Part shown: positions 3,746 through 34,491 of the stretch, in pieces
How the letters are laid out: the number at the start of each line of letters is the position of its first letter
Position numbering within the stretch: position 1 is the first letter of the stretch
Assembly (NCBI GenBank): GCA_031265035.1
Contig: JAISDE010000195.1
Coordinates: forward strand, 1 to 36,688
From: Peptococcaceae bacterium
GTDB lineage: Bacteria > Bacillota > Peptococcia > DRI-13 > UBA5745
Direction of reading: 5' to 3'
Length of the DNA: 36,688 bases
Program-made: the position numbers and the translations under genes
Notes under the pieces: model-generated
The model's input: only the letters and a program-made list of their open reading frames with translations
What the model was told of the DNA's origin: nothing
The model's database searches: none

Positions 3746-3885
3746 TTTCCCGCCTCCCCGCCTGTTTTTTCGTCCCTTTGCCAACGCCCCTTTGCCAACG
3801 CGCATTTTGCCAATCGGTATTTTTTTATCCGTCGGCACCTTTGCTCAGGAGCTTTGCCAACGCGTATTTTTGTCAATTGGCGCTT
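3746..3885. repeat. Short degenerate repeats between the aldolase gene and hpt
   Basis: The unit TTTGCCAACGC occurs at 3777, 3791 and 3853, with variant copies near 3806 and 3875 that include TTTTGCCAATCGG. On the - strand the units read roughly AAATACGCGTTGGCAAA. They resemble the last codons of the aldolase gene itself, which spell AAATACGGCAAAAGC. This suggests local duplication from the gene's 3' end. No terminator hairpin is evident. Confidence 0.6.
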
Positions 3886-4796
3886 TTGCCGTATTTGGCG
3901 AATACCCCCAATTCCTCCATCAACCGCCGCAGCTCAGCCAGCTTGTCGCCGCCTAATTCCTGATAAGGCTTGCGTAGCCCCCCGGCGGGCAGGCCCATCA
4001 TCCGCAGGGCGGCTTTAATACAGACGGGATTGGAGAAAAAGTACAGGGCTTTTAATAAGTCATAGTACTTGAGATAGGTATCCCGGCAGGCTTTGACCTG
4101 GTCGATACTATCCCAGGCTTTTGACATCAGCGCCATTTCCTCCGGGATCACGTTGCCGCCGATATTGGCCGCGCCTTGGCCGCCCATCGCCATCAGCGGC
4201 AGCAAAATAGAATATTTGGGGAAATCGCAGCACATCAGGCTCACCCGGTCGCCCAGGCGTCGCTTGACCTCGCATAAGTGGCCCACGCTGGGCATGGCCT
4301 CTTTATCTACCACAAAATTGGGGCACCGCTCGGCGAAACCGGCGATCATTTCCGGCTCCAGCATTACCCCGGTGCGGCTGGGGTTGTTGTATACACCTAC
4401 CGGCAAAGCGACGGAGGACATGGCGGTGAGAAAAAACTCGTTGACCGCCGCGGCGGAAGGCAGCAGGTAATAGGGCGCGGAAAAAACCAACCCGTCAGCC
4501 CCTTCTTTCTCCGCGTATTGGGCCAGCTTTACCGTAGCTTCCGTAGTGGCCATGGTAGAGCCAAAAAAGACGGGGATCCGGCCCCGGCAAAGCTTCACCA
4601 TTTCGGGTATGATCCCATAGCGCTCTTCCGGCGTCAGCATCGTCACCTCACCGGCGGAACCCATGCAGAAAAGCATGGATGTGCCATGGGCGACATGAAA
4701 ATCCACCAACTCCCTGAAGCCGCCAAAGTCCACTTTGTTGCGCGAGTCAAAAGGCGTCGGAATCGCCACCCAGGAACCGCTTGGTTTTATCATCAT
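3873..4796 (-). CDS. DapA/NanA-family (DHDPS-like) aldolase
   Basis: About 307 residues with the fold pattern of pyruvate-dependent class I aldolases. The Schiff-base lysine sits in FVVDKEA, the catalytic tyrosine in GVYNNPSRTG, and the relay tyrosine in SAPYYLLP. The usual GTTGE motif is instead GSAGE, so both threonines of the classical dihydrodipicolinate synthase relay are replaced. The protein may therefore act on a substrate other than aspartate semialdehyde. Its neighbours, hpt and the LpdD-like gene, give no pathway hint. GGGAGGA at 4801-4807 supports ATG 4796 or the adjacent ATG 4793; an upstream in-frame GTG at 4823 has no site. Confidence 0.82.
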   Translation of the reverse strand: MMIKPSGSWVAIPTPFDSRNKVDFGGFRELVDFHVAHGTSMLFCMGSAGEVTMLTPEERYGIIPEMVKLCRGRIPVFFGSTMATTEATVKLAQYAEKEGADGLVFSAPYYLLPSAAAVNEFFLTAMSSVALPVGVYNNPSRTGVMLEPEMIAGFAERCPNFVVDKEAMPSVGHLCEVKRRLGDRVSLMCCDFPKYSILLPLMAMGGQGAANIGGNVIPEEMALMSKAWDSIDQVKACRDTYLKYYDLLKALYFFSNPVCIKAALRMMGLPAGGLRKPYQELGGDKLAELRRLMEELGVFAKYGKSAN

Positions 4797-5033
4797 CGCG
4801 TCCTCCCTCAATTTAGTTTTCACTCAGGATAAACGGGAGAAACGCCCATCCGTTCCCGCTCCGTCAACGATAATAGTATAGCACGGAGCCGGAGACTTTG
4901 CCATGAAAATATTACGGCGGCTATTATCCCGCGGCTATTATACGCCGCCGCCCGCCGCCGCCCGCCGCCGCCCGCCGCCGCCCGCGGGTTTGTCCCGCCC
5001 GCCAGGCGCCGCCCCGCCCGGCGCCGCTCCCTA
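4797..5033. other. Intergenic stretch with promoter and GC-rich tandem repeat
   Basis: Between phoR and the aldolase gene. It holds an extended -10 motif on the - strand, TGCTATACT at 4875-4883, a plausible promoter for the aldolase gene without a good -35. It also holds the GC-rich decamer repeat listed separately. I see no gene here. Confidence 0.5.
4941..4990. repeat. Decamer tandem repeat with G-quadruplex pattern on the - strand
   Basis: CCCGCCGCCG is repeated three times in perfect 10-base register (4951-4980), followed by CCCG and preceded by a partial copy. On the - strand this gives four GGG runs separated by 7-base loops, which fits the usual G3N1-7 quadruplex pattern. It lies about 45 bases past the phoR stop and is on the sense strand of any read-through RNA. 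Confidence 0.75.
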
Positions 5034-9126: not shown

Positions 9127-9200
9127 ATGACAGGCAGGTGAATGAGCGGATGAATCAGCAGGTGAATGAGCGGGTGAATGAGTAGATGAATAAGCGGGTG
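9127..9200. repeat. Degenerate tandem repeat before the ABC ATPase
   Basis: Units close to GGTGAATGAGC recur about six times with 10-14 base spacing, with variants such as GATGAATCAGCA and GATGAATAAGCG. The block ends about 30 bases before the start codon and lies inside the inferred leader of the transporter mRNA. Confidence 0.6.
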
Positions 9201-9232
9201 AGCAACCCGCTGAAAAGAGGGGGAGTACATAC

Positions 9233-9940
9233 ATGGATGCCGAGGACGGGATTTTGGAATGTCGGGGAGTGACCAAGCATTTCGGCGCCAAAACCGCTTT
9301 AGTCAATGTGAATTTGAGTTTGCCCCGAGGCCGGATTGTCGGCCTGCTGGGTCCCAATGGCAGCGGTAAAACCACACTGTTGAAACTGATCAACGGCCTG
9401 ATCCGACCCAGCGCCGGCCAGATAGCGGTCAACGGCCACCCGCCCGGCGCCGAAAGCAAGGCCCTGATCTCCTATTTACCGGATAAAACCTATTTTAATG
9501 ACTGGATGCGGGTCAAAGACCTGCTGGCGTTTTTCCGCGACTTTTACTACGATTTTCGGCTGGGCGTCGCCCAAAGTATGCTGGCCAGCCTGCGGATTGA
9601 TCCCAGCCAGCGGCTGAAAACCCTGTCCAAGGGCACCAAGGAGAAGGTTCAGCTGGTACTGGTCATGGCCCGCAAAGCCAAGCTGTATCTTTTGGATGAG
9701 CCTATCGCCGGCGTGGATCCGGCCGCCCGGGATTATATCCTGCGCACGATCCTGAACAATTACAGCGAGGACGCTACCTTGCTGATCTCGACCCATCTGA
9801 TTCAGGATGTGGAGCAAATTTTCCATAACGTAATTTTTTTGCGGGACGGTAAAATCGTCCTTGACGGCGAGGCGGAGGCCCTGCGGGCGGAAAACGGCAT
9901 GTCCATCGACGCTTTATTCCGGGAGGTTTTCAAATGCTGA
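9233..9940 (+). CDS. ABC transporter ATP-binding protein (YtrB-like)
   Basis: 235 residues. Walker A is GLLGPNGSGKTTLLKLINGL, the signature is the variant LSKGTKEKVQL, Walker B is LYLLDEPIAGVDP, and the switch histidine is in LLISTH. The variant signature and short size resemble YtrB/BcrA-type ATPases that drive two-gene ABC-2 systems for peptide antibiotic resistance or unknown substrates. A GAGGGGGAG ribosome site lies just upstream, and the gene overlaps the permease gene by 7 bases. Unlike many ytr-type loci, no GntR repressor gene precedes it here. The substrate is not known. Confidence 0.85.
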   Translation: MDAEDGILECRGVTKHFGAKTALVNVNLSLPRGRIVGLLGPNGSGKTTLLKLINGLIRPSAGQIAVNGHPPGAESKALISYLPDKTYFNDWMRVKDLLAFFRDFYYDFRLGVAQSMLASLRIDPSQRLKTLSKGTKEKVQLVLVMARKAKLYLLDEPIAGVDPAARDYILRTILNNYSEDATLLISTHLIQDVEQIFHNVIFLRDGKIVLDGEAEALRAENGMSIDALFREVFKC

Positions 9941-10824
9941 CAAAATTATGGCTTTATGAGATGCGGGCCTGCGGTCGGATCCTGCTGCCTTTATACGGCG
10001 CCTTGATCCTCCTGTCCCTGCTGCTGGGCTTCCTCGGGCGATTCAGCAACGATGCCTTCGGTGTGATTCTCCCTATCCTGCTTATTATTTTCTTCGGTTT
10101 GCTGGTGGCTATTTTCTTCGTGACACTGATTCTTTTGATCCAAAGGTTTTGGCGCAATTTGCTGAAAAGCGAAGGCTACCTGATGTTTACTTTACCGGTC
10201 AGCGCTTACCAATTGGTAGGGGCAAAGCTCCTTTCCGCCTGCTGCTGGTTTATCCTGGGAGGTATCGCCGTGTCCGTAGCTATGCTGGCCTTGTTCCTCC
10301 AGCAAGACTTTGATATGGTACGGCTCTTTTTCCGGGACTTCTATGATGGGGCGCTGGTTTTCATCGCTCCCTGGCGCGCGAACGGCGCAACGGTCTATCA
10401 GCTGCTGCAATTCTTATTGATCGGCCTGTCCAATATGGCGCAGCAAATTCTCACCCTCTATGCCGCCCTCTCCATCAGTCAGATACCCAACCGTTTCCGG
10501 GTGCCTGTCGCCTACGGCAGTTTTTTGGCCCTTAACTACGTTCAAAACTTCGCCGCCACCGGACTGAGCAGGGCGATTTTCGCGATGGATGATGTGGGCA
10601 AGGCTTTCGCCGCCCTTGTTTCGTCGCCTTTGCGGCCTTTCTTCTTGTCGCTTTTAGCGCCTTACCCCTCCTCCTTCTACAACACTCTGCCCACCCTCAC
10701 CCCCGCCGATATCACCCTGATCGCCACCTACCTCAATTTTATTCTGGCGGTGGGATTGATCACCAACCTGCTCTACTTCTTGCTGTCCGGCGCGCTGCTG
10801 AAAAATAAACTGAACCTGCTTTGA
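9934..10824 (+). CDS. ABC-2-like transporter permease
   Basis: 296 residues and very hydrophobic, with about six membrane spans. One lies near residues 17-37, a second near 41-70, and others in the middle and at the C-terminus. The phrase LMFTLPVSAYQLVGAKLLSA after the second span is typical of permeases partnered with YtrB/BcrA-like ATPases. It overlaps the ATPase gene by 7 bases and surely forms one transporter with it. The transported compound and the direction (probably export) are inferences from family resemblance only. Confidence 0.75.
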   Translation: MLTKLWLYEMRACGRILLPLYGALILLSLLLGFLGRFSNDAFGVILPILLIIFFGLLVAIFFVTLILLIQRFWRNLLKSEGYLMFTLPVSAYQLVGAKLLSACCWFILGGIAVSVAMLALFLQQDFDMVRLFFRDFYDGALVFIAPWRANGATVYQLLQFLLIGLSNMAQQILTLYAALSISQIPNRFRVPVAYGSFLALNYVQNFAATGLSRAIFAMDDVGKAFAALVSSPLRPFFLSLLAPYPSSFYNTLPTLTPADITLIATYLNFILAVGLITNLLYFLLSGALLKNKLNLL

Positions 10825-10861: not shown

Positions 10862-11060
10862 AAGGTACAAGATACAAGGTACAAGATACGAGATGCAAGG
10901 TACAAGGTACAAGATACGAGACGCAAGATATAAGATACAAGGTACAAGATGCAAGGTACAAGGTACAAGATACGAGACGCAAGATATAAGATACAAGGTA
11001 CAAGATACAAGATATGAGACGCAAGATATAAGATACAAGGTACAAGGTACAAGATACAAG
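10862..11060. repeat. Heptamer tandem repeat array (28 units)
   Basis: Twenty-eight consecutive 7-base units plus 3 bases, with no slip of register. The units are AAGGTAC, AAGATAC, AAGATAT, AAGATGC, GAGACGC and GAGATGC. A higher-order order recurs: GAGACGC, AAGATAT, AAGATAC, AAGGTAC leads each of the last three blocks. Because 7 is not a multiple of 3, all - strand frames stay open and read as Tyr/Leu/Cys-rich text, which I regard as non-coding. There are no spacers, so this is not CRISPR. Confidence 0.92.
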
Positions 11061-11070
11061 AATCAGCAAA

Positions 11071-11117
11071 AAAAGAGGCGGCCCGTCGGGAAATCCTCCC
11101 GACAGGCCGCCTCTTTT
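11071..11117. terminator. Bidirectional intrinsic terminator
   Basis: The arms AAAAGAGGCGGCC and GGCCGCCTCTTTT pair perfectly, with an inner stem GTCGGGA/TCCCGAC. A-runs and T-runs flank both sides. It can end groEL transcription from the right and read-through from the transporter and repeat array on the left. Confidence 0.9.
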
Positions 11118-11153: not shown

Positions 11154-12791
<1,638 letters not shown>

Positions 12792-29480: not shown

Positions 29481-29510
29481 GCGATTCCCTCCCGCGCTTT
29501 ACTTTCACTG

Positions 29511-29586
29511 GTATTAACATTGCTCCACTACTCCGCTGTATTAACATTGCTCCACTACTCCGCGACATTAACATTACTCCACTATG
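29511..29586. repeat. 27-base tandem repeat overlapping the citrate synthase stop
   Basis: Three units starting at 29511, 29538 and 29565, beginning GTATTAACATTGCTCCACTA; the third is shorter and diverged. The third unit contains the stop codon of the citrate synthase gene at 29574. Each unit is 9 codons and on the - strand contains GGAGCAATG, a ribosome site next to ATG. The array fills the gap before the GntR gene. Confidence 0.88.
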
Positions 29587-34174: not shown

Positions 34175-34427
34175 CCTCAAATCCATCAGCCGCGTTCAGG
34201 CTTACCGCGTGATCCGCACCGGGGCGGAAGCTCTCGGCTTCGACGCCAGGGTGTCCTGCCACTCGCTCCGCAAGACCTTCGGCTATCACGCCTGGAAGCA
34301 CGGCATATCGCCCGCGGTGATCATGAAGGTCTACAACCACTCATCCCTGGCCGTGACCCAATGCTACCTGGGCATTACCCAGGACGATATCAATGATTGC
34401 TATAGCAAGCTGGCGGACATGGTGTGA
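34175..34427 (+). pseudogene. C-terminal remnant of a tyrosine recombinase/integrase
   Basis: About 82 codons show the catalytic end of a phage-type integrase. SISRVQAYRVI leads in, then CHSLRKTFGYHAWKHG (His-x-x-Arg), VYNHSSLAVTQCYLGITQDD with the nucleophile Tyr. The N-terminal half, including the DNA-binding core and the first catalytic Arg, is missing. The open frame upstream (from 34011) is only terminator and repeat text. No attachment site is recognisable. It marks a past mobile element. Confidence 0.85.
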
Positions 34428-34491
34428 GTACCTCGGATAATATATACGAGTATCTCAGATAATATGTACGAGTACCTTAAATGATATATCG
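34426..34491. repeat. 22-base tandem repeat between two gene ends
   Basis: Three units in register at 34426, 34448 and 34470, of the form GAGTAYCTCRGATAATATRTAC, with the last most diverged. The array overlaps the stop codon of the integrase remnant at its left end and the stop codon of the acyltransferase gene (34477) in the third unit. Confidence 0.85.

What the first reader, a model, noticed from the sequence alone, without database searches (positions are those of the whole stretch)
10862..11060. Perfect-register 28-unit heptamer array with higher-order pattern
Six heptamer variants, all of the form RAGRYRY, follow each other 28 times with no indel. Larger blocks beginning GAGACGC-AAGATAT are repeated, which implies amplification of multi-unit blocks. 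One strand is purine-rich. It sits between convergent genes next to a strong terminator, where such an array could act as a polymerase or nucleoid-protein site or as a hypervariable locus.
Basis: seen in the sequence. Interest (0 to 1): 0.5.

Follow-up and report, generated by a model that had tools for sequence, protein, structure and literature searches.

The report
Heptamer repeat array behind stop codon
A 200-base run of 28 seven-letter repeats sits just behind the end of a transporter gene; it is one of several such arrays in this genome and belongs to a widespread, poorly understood class of bacterial seven-base repeats that tend to begin right behind the stop signals of genes.

Summary
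The array is real: 28 RAGRYRY heptamers at 10862-11057, no indel, six variants differing only by transitions; 100 shuffles gave at most 2 units. A 7-unit block is duplicated (P=0.0012). It is not a lone locus: the genome holds three more AAGRYAC arrays and other heptamer families, while 0 of 59 relatives match the 6-unit pattern. Similar arrays lie in about 80 genomes of at least 17 phyla and in 60 of 1089 genomes drawn from three phyla, against 27 of 1089 for the reversed motif: a twofold preference only. Genomes tend to use one unit each; of six orthologous pairs, two differ in unit number (18/8, 14/7). Arrays start within 25 nt behind a stop codon on the purine-rich sense strand in 21 of 44 cases, against 2 of 39 on the other strand; the reversed motif does likewise, 7/14 against 0/11. 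Best reading: a dispersed heptanucleotide repeat in an untranslated 3' tail, growing by slippage and block duplication. The kind is known; mechanism and transcription are inferred. A polymerase or nucleoid-protein site is unsupported.

The parts
10862..11061 (+). array of 28 RAGRYRY heptamers plus 4 bases; + is the purine-rich strand (72% purine)
10897..10945 (+). first copy of the duplicated 7-unit block (units 6-12)
   Evidence: unit string, block test
10953..11001 (+). second copy of the duplicated 7-unit block (units 14-20)
   Evidence: unit string, block test
9934..10824 (+). gene the array is sense to: 296-aa membrane-protein-like partner of an ABC ATPase; its stop lies 37 nt before the array
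   Evidence: membrane-protein label is my reading of context, no family hit
9233..9940 (+). ABC-transporter ATPase-like gene upstream of it
11072..11116 (-). terminator hairpin with U tract in the groEL direction; may also end transcription from the left (inferred from the T-rich tail on the + strand)
11154..12791 (-). groEL, convergent neighbour; stop 92 nt from the array

Best explanation
A dispersed heptanucleotide tandem repeat in the untranslated 3' tail of the upstream gene. Shown: the array and its block duplication, sister arrays in the genome, a general placement rule for such arrays, genome-specific units, and unit-number differences at some orthologous arrays elsewhere. Inferred: (1) the array is transcribed as the tail of the upstream gene's mRNA; (2) it grows by replication slippage and unequal exchange of multi-unit blocks; (3) growth is favoured or tolerated where the purine-rich strand is the RNA-like strand and no ribosomes follow, for instance because purine-rich nascent RNA re-pairs with the template (R-loop) and destabilises the repeat; (4) arrays of one genome share a unit because they seed or convert one another. 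No dedicated function is needed.
For: Block duplication. Sister arrays on contigs C93, C104, C100; C104's array starts on the stop codon itself, C93's starts 16 nt behind a stop. Placement in unselected draws: sense stop within 25 nt 21 of 44, antisense stop 2 of 39, p=1.4e-5; convergent cases nearer the sense stop 21 of 24. Same in the AAGRTAC set, 25 of 47 vs 3 of 39, and with one array per genome (22.2 of 50.7 vs 3.3 of 41.7 on average, median p 1.2e-4). The reversed motif obeys the same rule, 7 of 14 vs 0 of 11, so no particular unit is required. Modal units are alike within genomes (0.56 vs 2.16 differences, 0 of 5000 permutations). Unit numbers 18/8 and 14/7 at orthologous sites. Divergent spacers are poor in arrays, 8 vs 24 convergent.
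Against: Transcription, R-loops and instability were not measured. Among arrays between tandem genes sense is not significantly commoner than antisense (20 vs 15). Four of six orthologous pairs have 4 and 4 units. One small own array (L019) lies nearer the antisense stop, and L016 lies before a start and not behind a stop. The array RNA folds somewhat better than shuffles (z -2.9, -17.7 kcal/mol over 200 nt), which leaves room for an RNA role. Shared units within a genome could also mean selection. Gene calls are simple longest-ORF calls.
Confidence: 0.5

Rival explanations
1. Functional 3'UTR RNA element: a repeated binding site for an RNA-binding protein, or an mRNA-end buffer, with the same unit selected at many genes of one genome.
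For: One unit per genome at unrelated sites; start close behind stop codons on the sense strand; array RNA folds better than shuffles. MacGregor proposed a translational regulator for TAACTGA repeats (PMC4679880).
Against: The reversed motif has the same placement, units change wholesale between orthologous arrays (GAGATAC to GAGATAT), arrays are absent from 13 of 15 genomes of one genus and from 59 of 59 sampled relatives of this genome by the 6-unit pattern.
Confidence: 0.2
2. Contingency (phase-variation) locus: changes in unit number switch or tune a neighbouring gene.
For: Unit number varies at two of six orthologous arrays; L016 lies between a promoter-like stretch and a start codon (by eye).
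Against: The window array is not inside a gene or before a start; neighbours are a transporter and groEL, both convergent to it. Array starts within 25 nt before a sense start are few: 2 of 28. Rehm et al. rejected this role for their repeats (PMC4692102).
Confidence: 0.06
3. Polymerase or nucleoid-protein site between convergent genes.
For: Convergent spacers hold more arrays than divergent ones, 24 vs 8.
Against: Arrays are as common between tandem genes (20 sense plus 15 antisense) and follow one stop codon and strand and not the middle of convergent spacers; unit sequence differs from genome to genome.
Confidence: 0.05
4. Product of a telomerase-like reverse transcriptase (such as DRT10, which makes 9-nt tandem-repeat cDNA) captured in the chromosome.
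For: Such enzymes exist in bacteria and make short tandem repeats (PMC12632851, abstract in a listing and passages).
Against: No RVT_1 (PF00078) match in this genome (85% complete) nor in 7 of the 11 array-bearing genomes examined, G000 included; 4 of 13 array-free genomes of one genus have one.
Confidence: 0.02
5. Assembly artefact.
For: 247 contigs, 85% complete; one heptamer array ends 2 bases from a contig end (L028) and another begins 167 bases from one (L016), so unit numbers may be wrong.
Against: Ordered variants with genes on both sides; the same class in independent assemblies, also in contigs over 3 Mb.
Confidence: 0.02

Closest known systems
GGGNATC / GGGGA(C/T)T heptamer repeats of Xanthomonas and Nostoc (Rehm et al. 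2015, PMC4692102; abstract, introduction, section 13 and discussion read)
   Same: Dispersed intergenic tandem heptanucleotides, poor between divergent genes, mostly within 50 bp behind the stop on the coding strand, length variable between relatives
   Different: G-rich and able to form G-quadruplexes, with a preference for four units; there repeats lie near their 5' neighbour whatever its orientation, here only when the neighbour is sense (10 of 20 and 7 of 11 otherwise)
TAACTGA direct repeats (MacGregor 2015, PMC4679880; abstract and section 10 read)
   Same: One heptamer at many intergenic sites, patchy over Beggiatoaceae, Cyanobacteria and Bacteroidetes
   Different: In the main genome two to six copies, mostly just before start codons
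Cyanobacterial STRR heptanucleotides (Calothrix; recalled, and mentioned in the introduction of PMC4692102)
   Same: Tandem heptanucleotides dispersed in a genome
   Different: Other units; original paper not read
Geobacter metallireducens four-unit GGGACCG elements, 49 places (PMC2700814, passages read)
   Same: Dispersed tandem heptanucleotides with one unit per genome
   Different: Four units, also inside genes
Heptamer repeats before the S23p gene in the Coxiella 23S intervening sequence (PMC4990558, passages read)
   Same: Heptamers whose number differs by strain
   Different: Two or three units (plus a degenerate one) at a single site before a start codon

Membership tests
dispersed intergenic heptanucleotide repeats (STRR-like, broad sense) | tandem 7-nt units | tested here: met
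   28 units
dispersed intergenic heptanucleotide repeats (STRR-like, broad sense) | several intergenic arrays of related units in one genome | tested here: met
   four AAGRYAC-type arrays and other heptamer families
G-quadruplex heptamers (GGGNATC type) | tracts of three or more G in each unit | tested here: not met
   no unit of the window array holds GGG
G-quadruplex heptamers (GGGNATC type) | location behind the stop on the sense strand | tested here: met
   37 nt behind the stop; class rule
TAACTGA repeats | unit TAACTGA just before start codons | tested here: not met
   other unit, behind a stop
contingency-locus simple sequence repeats | repeat in a coding region or promoter of the switched gene | tested here: not met
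   3' side of both neighbours
contingency-locus simple sequence repeats | unit number varies within the population | not testable with these tools
   one assembly of the species
products of a telomerase-like reverse transcriptase (DRT10) | reverse transcriptase in the genome | tested here: not met
   no PF00078 match in G000, 85% complete
polymerase or nucleoid-protein binding site | bound protein | not testable with these tools
   no binding data

The most novel reading that the evidence does not exclude
Bacterial heptamer arrays of quite different sequence obey one rule: they arise at the stop codon on the purine-rich sense strand and are homogenised within a genome, because a transcription-coupled process in the ribosome-free tail (for example an R-loop) makes 7-base repeats there and spreads the local unit. 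That would be a general, polar source of new intergenic DNA in bacteria, independent of G-quadruplexes.
Probability: 0.2. Interest if true: 0.7.

Novelty: new member of a known kind. Interest (0 to 1): 0.4.

Why it matters
Heptanucleotide repeats are known to be common in some bacteria but are unexplained. The placement rule found here (directly behind stop codons, purine-rich strand sense, for two different unit classes, in draws from three phyla) speaks against the G-quadruplex as the general cause and makes the question of why seven bases and why there testable with reporter constructs and long-read resequencing.

Tried and rejected
Reverse-transcriptase origin: not supported. Link with S23/IVP four-helix-bundle genes: suggested by L197 and L198, but such genes were found in only 5 of 148 array-bearing loci (1 of 103, 3 of 34, 1 of 11), 0 of 22 other loci and 0 of 24 own stretches. 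A special AAGRTAC consensus: in viral contigs AAGRTACx4 is no commoner than two controls (2 stretches against 4 and 9), and the RAGRYRY excess over its reversal is about twofold (60 vs 27 of 1089 genomes; discordant 54 vs 21, p=0.0002; Pseudomonadota 20 vs 5, own phylum 9 vs 2, Bacteroidota 25 vs 14, the last two not significant alone). A regular superperiod in the window array: not supported. Shared flanks among the genome's four AAGRYAC arrays: only short weak matches, best E 0.005. Empty-site comparison at the window locus: the neighbouring transporter genes gave no tblastn hit beside groEL in 7 relatives' loci, so the spacer could not be compared. A period-7 excess in randomly chosen contigs of this genome: 4 period-7 rows (one A-rich and doubtful) in 34 unmasked contigs, fewer than for periods 11, 12, 14 and 15. 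In the array-bearing loci, with the seed arrays and 100 bp around masked, period 7 is the commonest (23 perfect arrays of 3 or more copies; next is period 4 with 13).

Rows dropped and limits: L206 (copy of an own array) left out of the draws; same-strand arrays within 30 bp merged; of 151 arrays, 23 inside called ORFs and 22 without both neighbours were left out, 106 used, 30 of 34, 37 of 45 and 19 of 28 arrays were usable. Array listings show only the first places of a genome, so not every array of a genome was fetched; Bacteroidota arrays were fetched for 28 of the 30 matching genomes. Own-phylum and control loci have about 1.5 kb flanks, the others about 3 kb. The 1089 leave out the centre genomes G061, G000 and G060. 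The within-genome unit test does not correct for related genomes.

Full report
Observation. The window holds 28 consecutive heptamers of the form RAGRYRY from 10862 to 11057, followed by AAGA. Six variants occur and all 26 differences from AAGATAC are transitions; shuffled windows gave at most two units in a row in 100 tries. A block of seven units is present twice, 56 bp apart, and part of it a third time; permuted unit orders reach seven units or more with P=0.0012, although a regular superperiod is not supported.

Setting. The array begins 37 nt behind the stop of a 296-aa protein gene that follows an ABC-ATPase-like gene, on the same strand, and ends 92 nt before the stop of groEL, which points the other way. 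A strong hairpin with a U tract in the groEL direction lies between array and groEL; the + side also has a T-rich tail, so two-way termination is plausible but inferred. The array as RNA folds to -17.7 kcal/mol over 200 nt, better than shuffles (z -2.9). groEL was found in 7 of 8 relatives of the family. For the six with sequence behind it, the 330 bases printed show no heptamer array to the eye (L142-L146, L148; L147 ends at the gene), and the transporter genes are not found beside it, so the spacers are not strictly comparable.

Same genome. A DNA search finds three more arrays, on contigs C93, C104 and C100, of 233, 217 and 175 bp with their own unit mixtures. The C104 array starts on the stop codon itself (the TAA overlaps the first unit) and ends 16 nt before the next gene; the C93 array starts 16 nt behind a stop; the C100 array lies before a start codon, behind a promoter-like stretch (both by eye), near a contig end. 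Of 34 unmasked contigs chosen only by number, three held clear heptamer arrays of other families: GGGNGCY, RAGTTNR and AAGTTAC. C142 has a 39-bp GAGGTAT array which lies nearer its antisense stop, against the rule below. The 6-unit RAGRYRY pattern matched 0 of 59 relatives from family to phylum; the 4-unit pattern matched one genome of the same order once (G019).

Elsewhere. A scan of the species-genome collection for AAGRTAC x4 gave 103 stretches before stopping at its limit, from about 80 genomes and 17 named phyla. To avoid this selection I drew genomes of three phyla with the degenerate pattern RAGRYRY x4: 20 of 397 Pseudomonadota, 10 of 397 of the window's own phylum, 30 of 295 Bacteroidota (centres left out). 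The same pattern read backwards matched 5, 3 and 19. The preference is real over all (54 vs 21 discordant genomes, p=0.0002) but only about twofold, and not significant in two of the three phyla alone.

Placement. With a simple longest-ORF gene call, arrays of the three draws begin within 25 nt of the stop of a gene they are sense to in 21 of 44 cases, but within 25 nt of the stop of a gene they are antisense to in 2 of 39 (p=1.4e-5); between convergent genes 21 of 24 are nearer the sense stop. The AAGRTAC set gives 25 of 47 vs 3 of 39. One array per genome, over 75 genomes of that set and two of the draws, gives on average 22.2 of 50.7 vs 3.3 of 41.7. The reversed heptamer class also shows it: 7 of 14 vs 0 of 11, and 8 of 8 convergent cases. 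Convergent spacers hold three times as many arrays as divergent ones (24 vs 8). Against a simple strand rule, arrays between tandem genes are only slightly more often sense than antisense (20 vs 15, not significant), and arrays with an antisense 5' neighbour show no nearness to it (10 of 20 and 7 of 11).

Turnover. Within a genome the modal units are alike (mean distance 0.56 within, 2.16 between; 35 arrays, 20 genomes, 0 of 5000 permutations). In the genus of Thalassotalea sp. ND16A, 2 of 15 genomes carry AAGRTAC arrays, one with 83 pattern matches and one with 13, and 13 have none. Of six pairs of arrays with similar flanks on both sides in different genomes, two differ in unit number (18 and 8, with nearly all units changed from GAGATAC to GAGATAT; 14 and 7) and four have 4 and 4 units by the pattern.

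Reading. The array is one of a dispersed class of heptanucleotide repeats that, most likely, grow by slippage and block duplication in 3' tails of genes. [quoted passage not shown] The present units have no GGG, so the quadruplex is not a general cause. Those authors also cite the idea that seven bases reflect the DNA segment held by the polymerase. Transcription through ribosome-free, purine-rich sequence is the mechanism I find most likely, but nothing here shows it. The reversed-class control and the genome-specific units argue against one conserved protein site. A telomerase-like enzyme is not supported: no RVT_1 match in this genome or in 7 of 11 array-bearing genomes, this one included.

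Known or not. My paper searches showed no account of RAGRYRY arrays in their listings; the library holds only open-licence papers, and I read only the papers and parts named under Closest known systems plus passages of PMC4060949 and PMC12632851. I file the array as a new member of a known kind. The part that may be new is the common placement of arrays of different sequence in several phyla.

Noticed in passing
L197:2198-3066 and 3793-4182; L198:50-84: Two S23/IVP-like four-helix-bundle genes (label by recall) lie in L197, with heptamer arrays within 8 nt of one of them; a fragment of such a gene lies beside the L198 array. Coxiella's S23p gene also has heptamers before it (PMC4990558).
   Followed up: partly
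L028:14509-14735: A GGGNGCY heptamer array (G-rich strand is the minus strand) runs to 2 bases from the contig end, so arrays may break this assembly.
   Followed up: no
L029:3930-4175: A 246-bp RAGTTNR heptamer array fills a spacer between two genes that read in the same direction, 30 nt behind one stop and 33 nt before the next start on the purine-rich strand.
   Followed up: partly
L040:6514-6594, also L066, L074, L092: Inverted pairs of heptamer arrays (AAGGTAC run followed by its complement) that could form long hairpins.
   Followed up: no
L063, L102, L110, L130 (Thalassotalea): Arrays followed by a shared AAGCAG... stretch and a terminator-like hairpin, as if array and terminator travelled together.
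   Followed up: partly
window 4943-4985, 9134-9201, 29510-29584, 34426-34489: Other tandem repeats in the window with periods 10, 12/24, 27 and 22.
   Followed up: no
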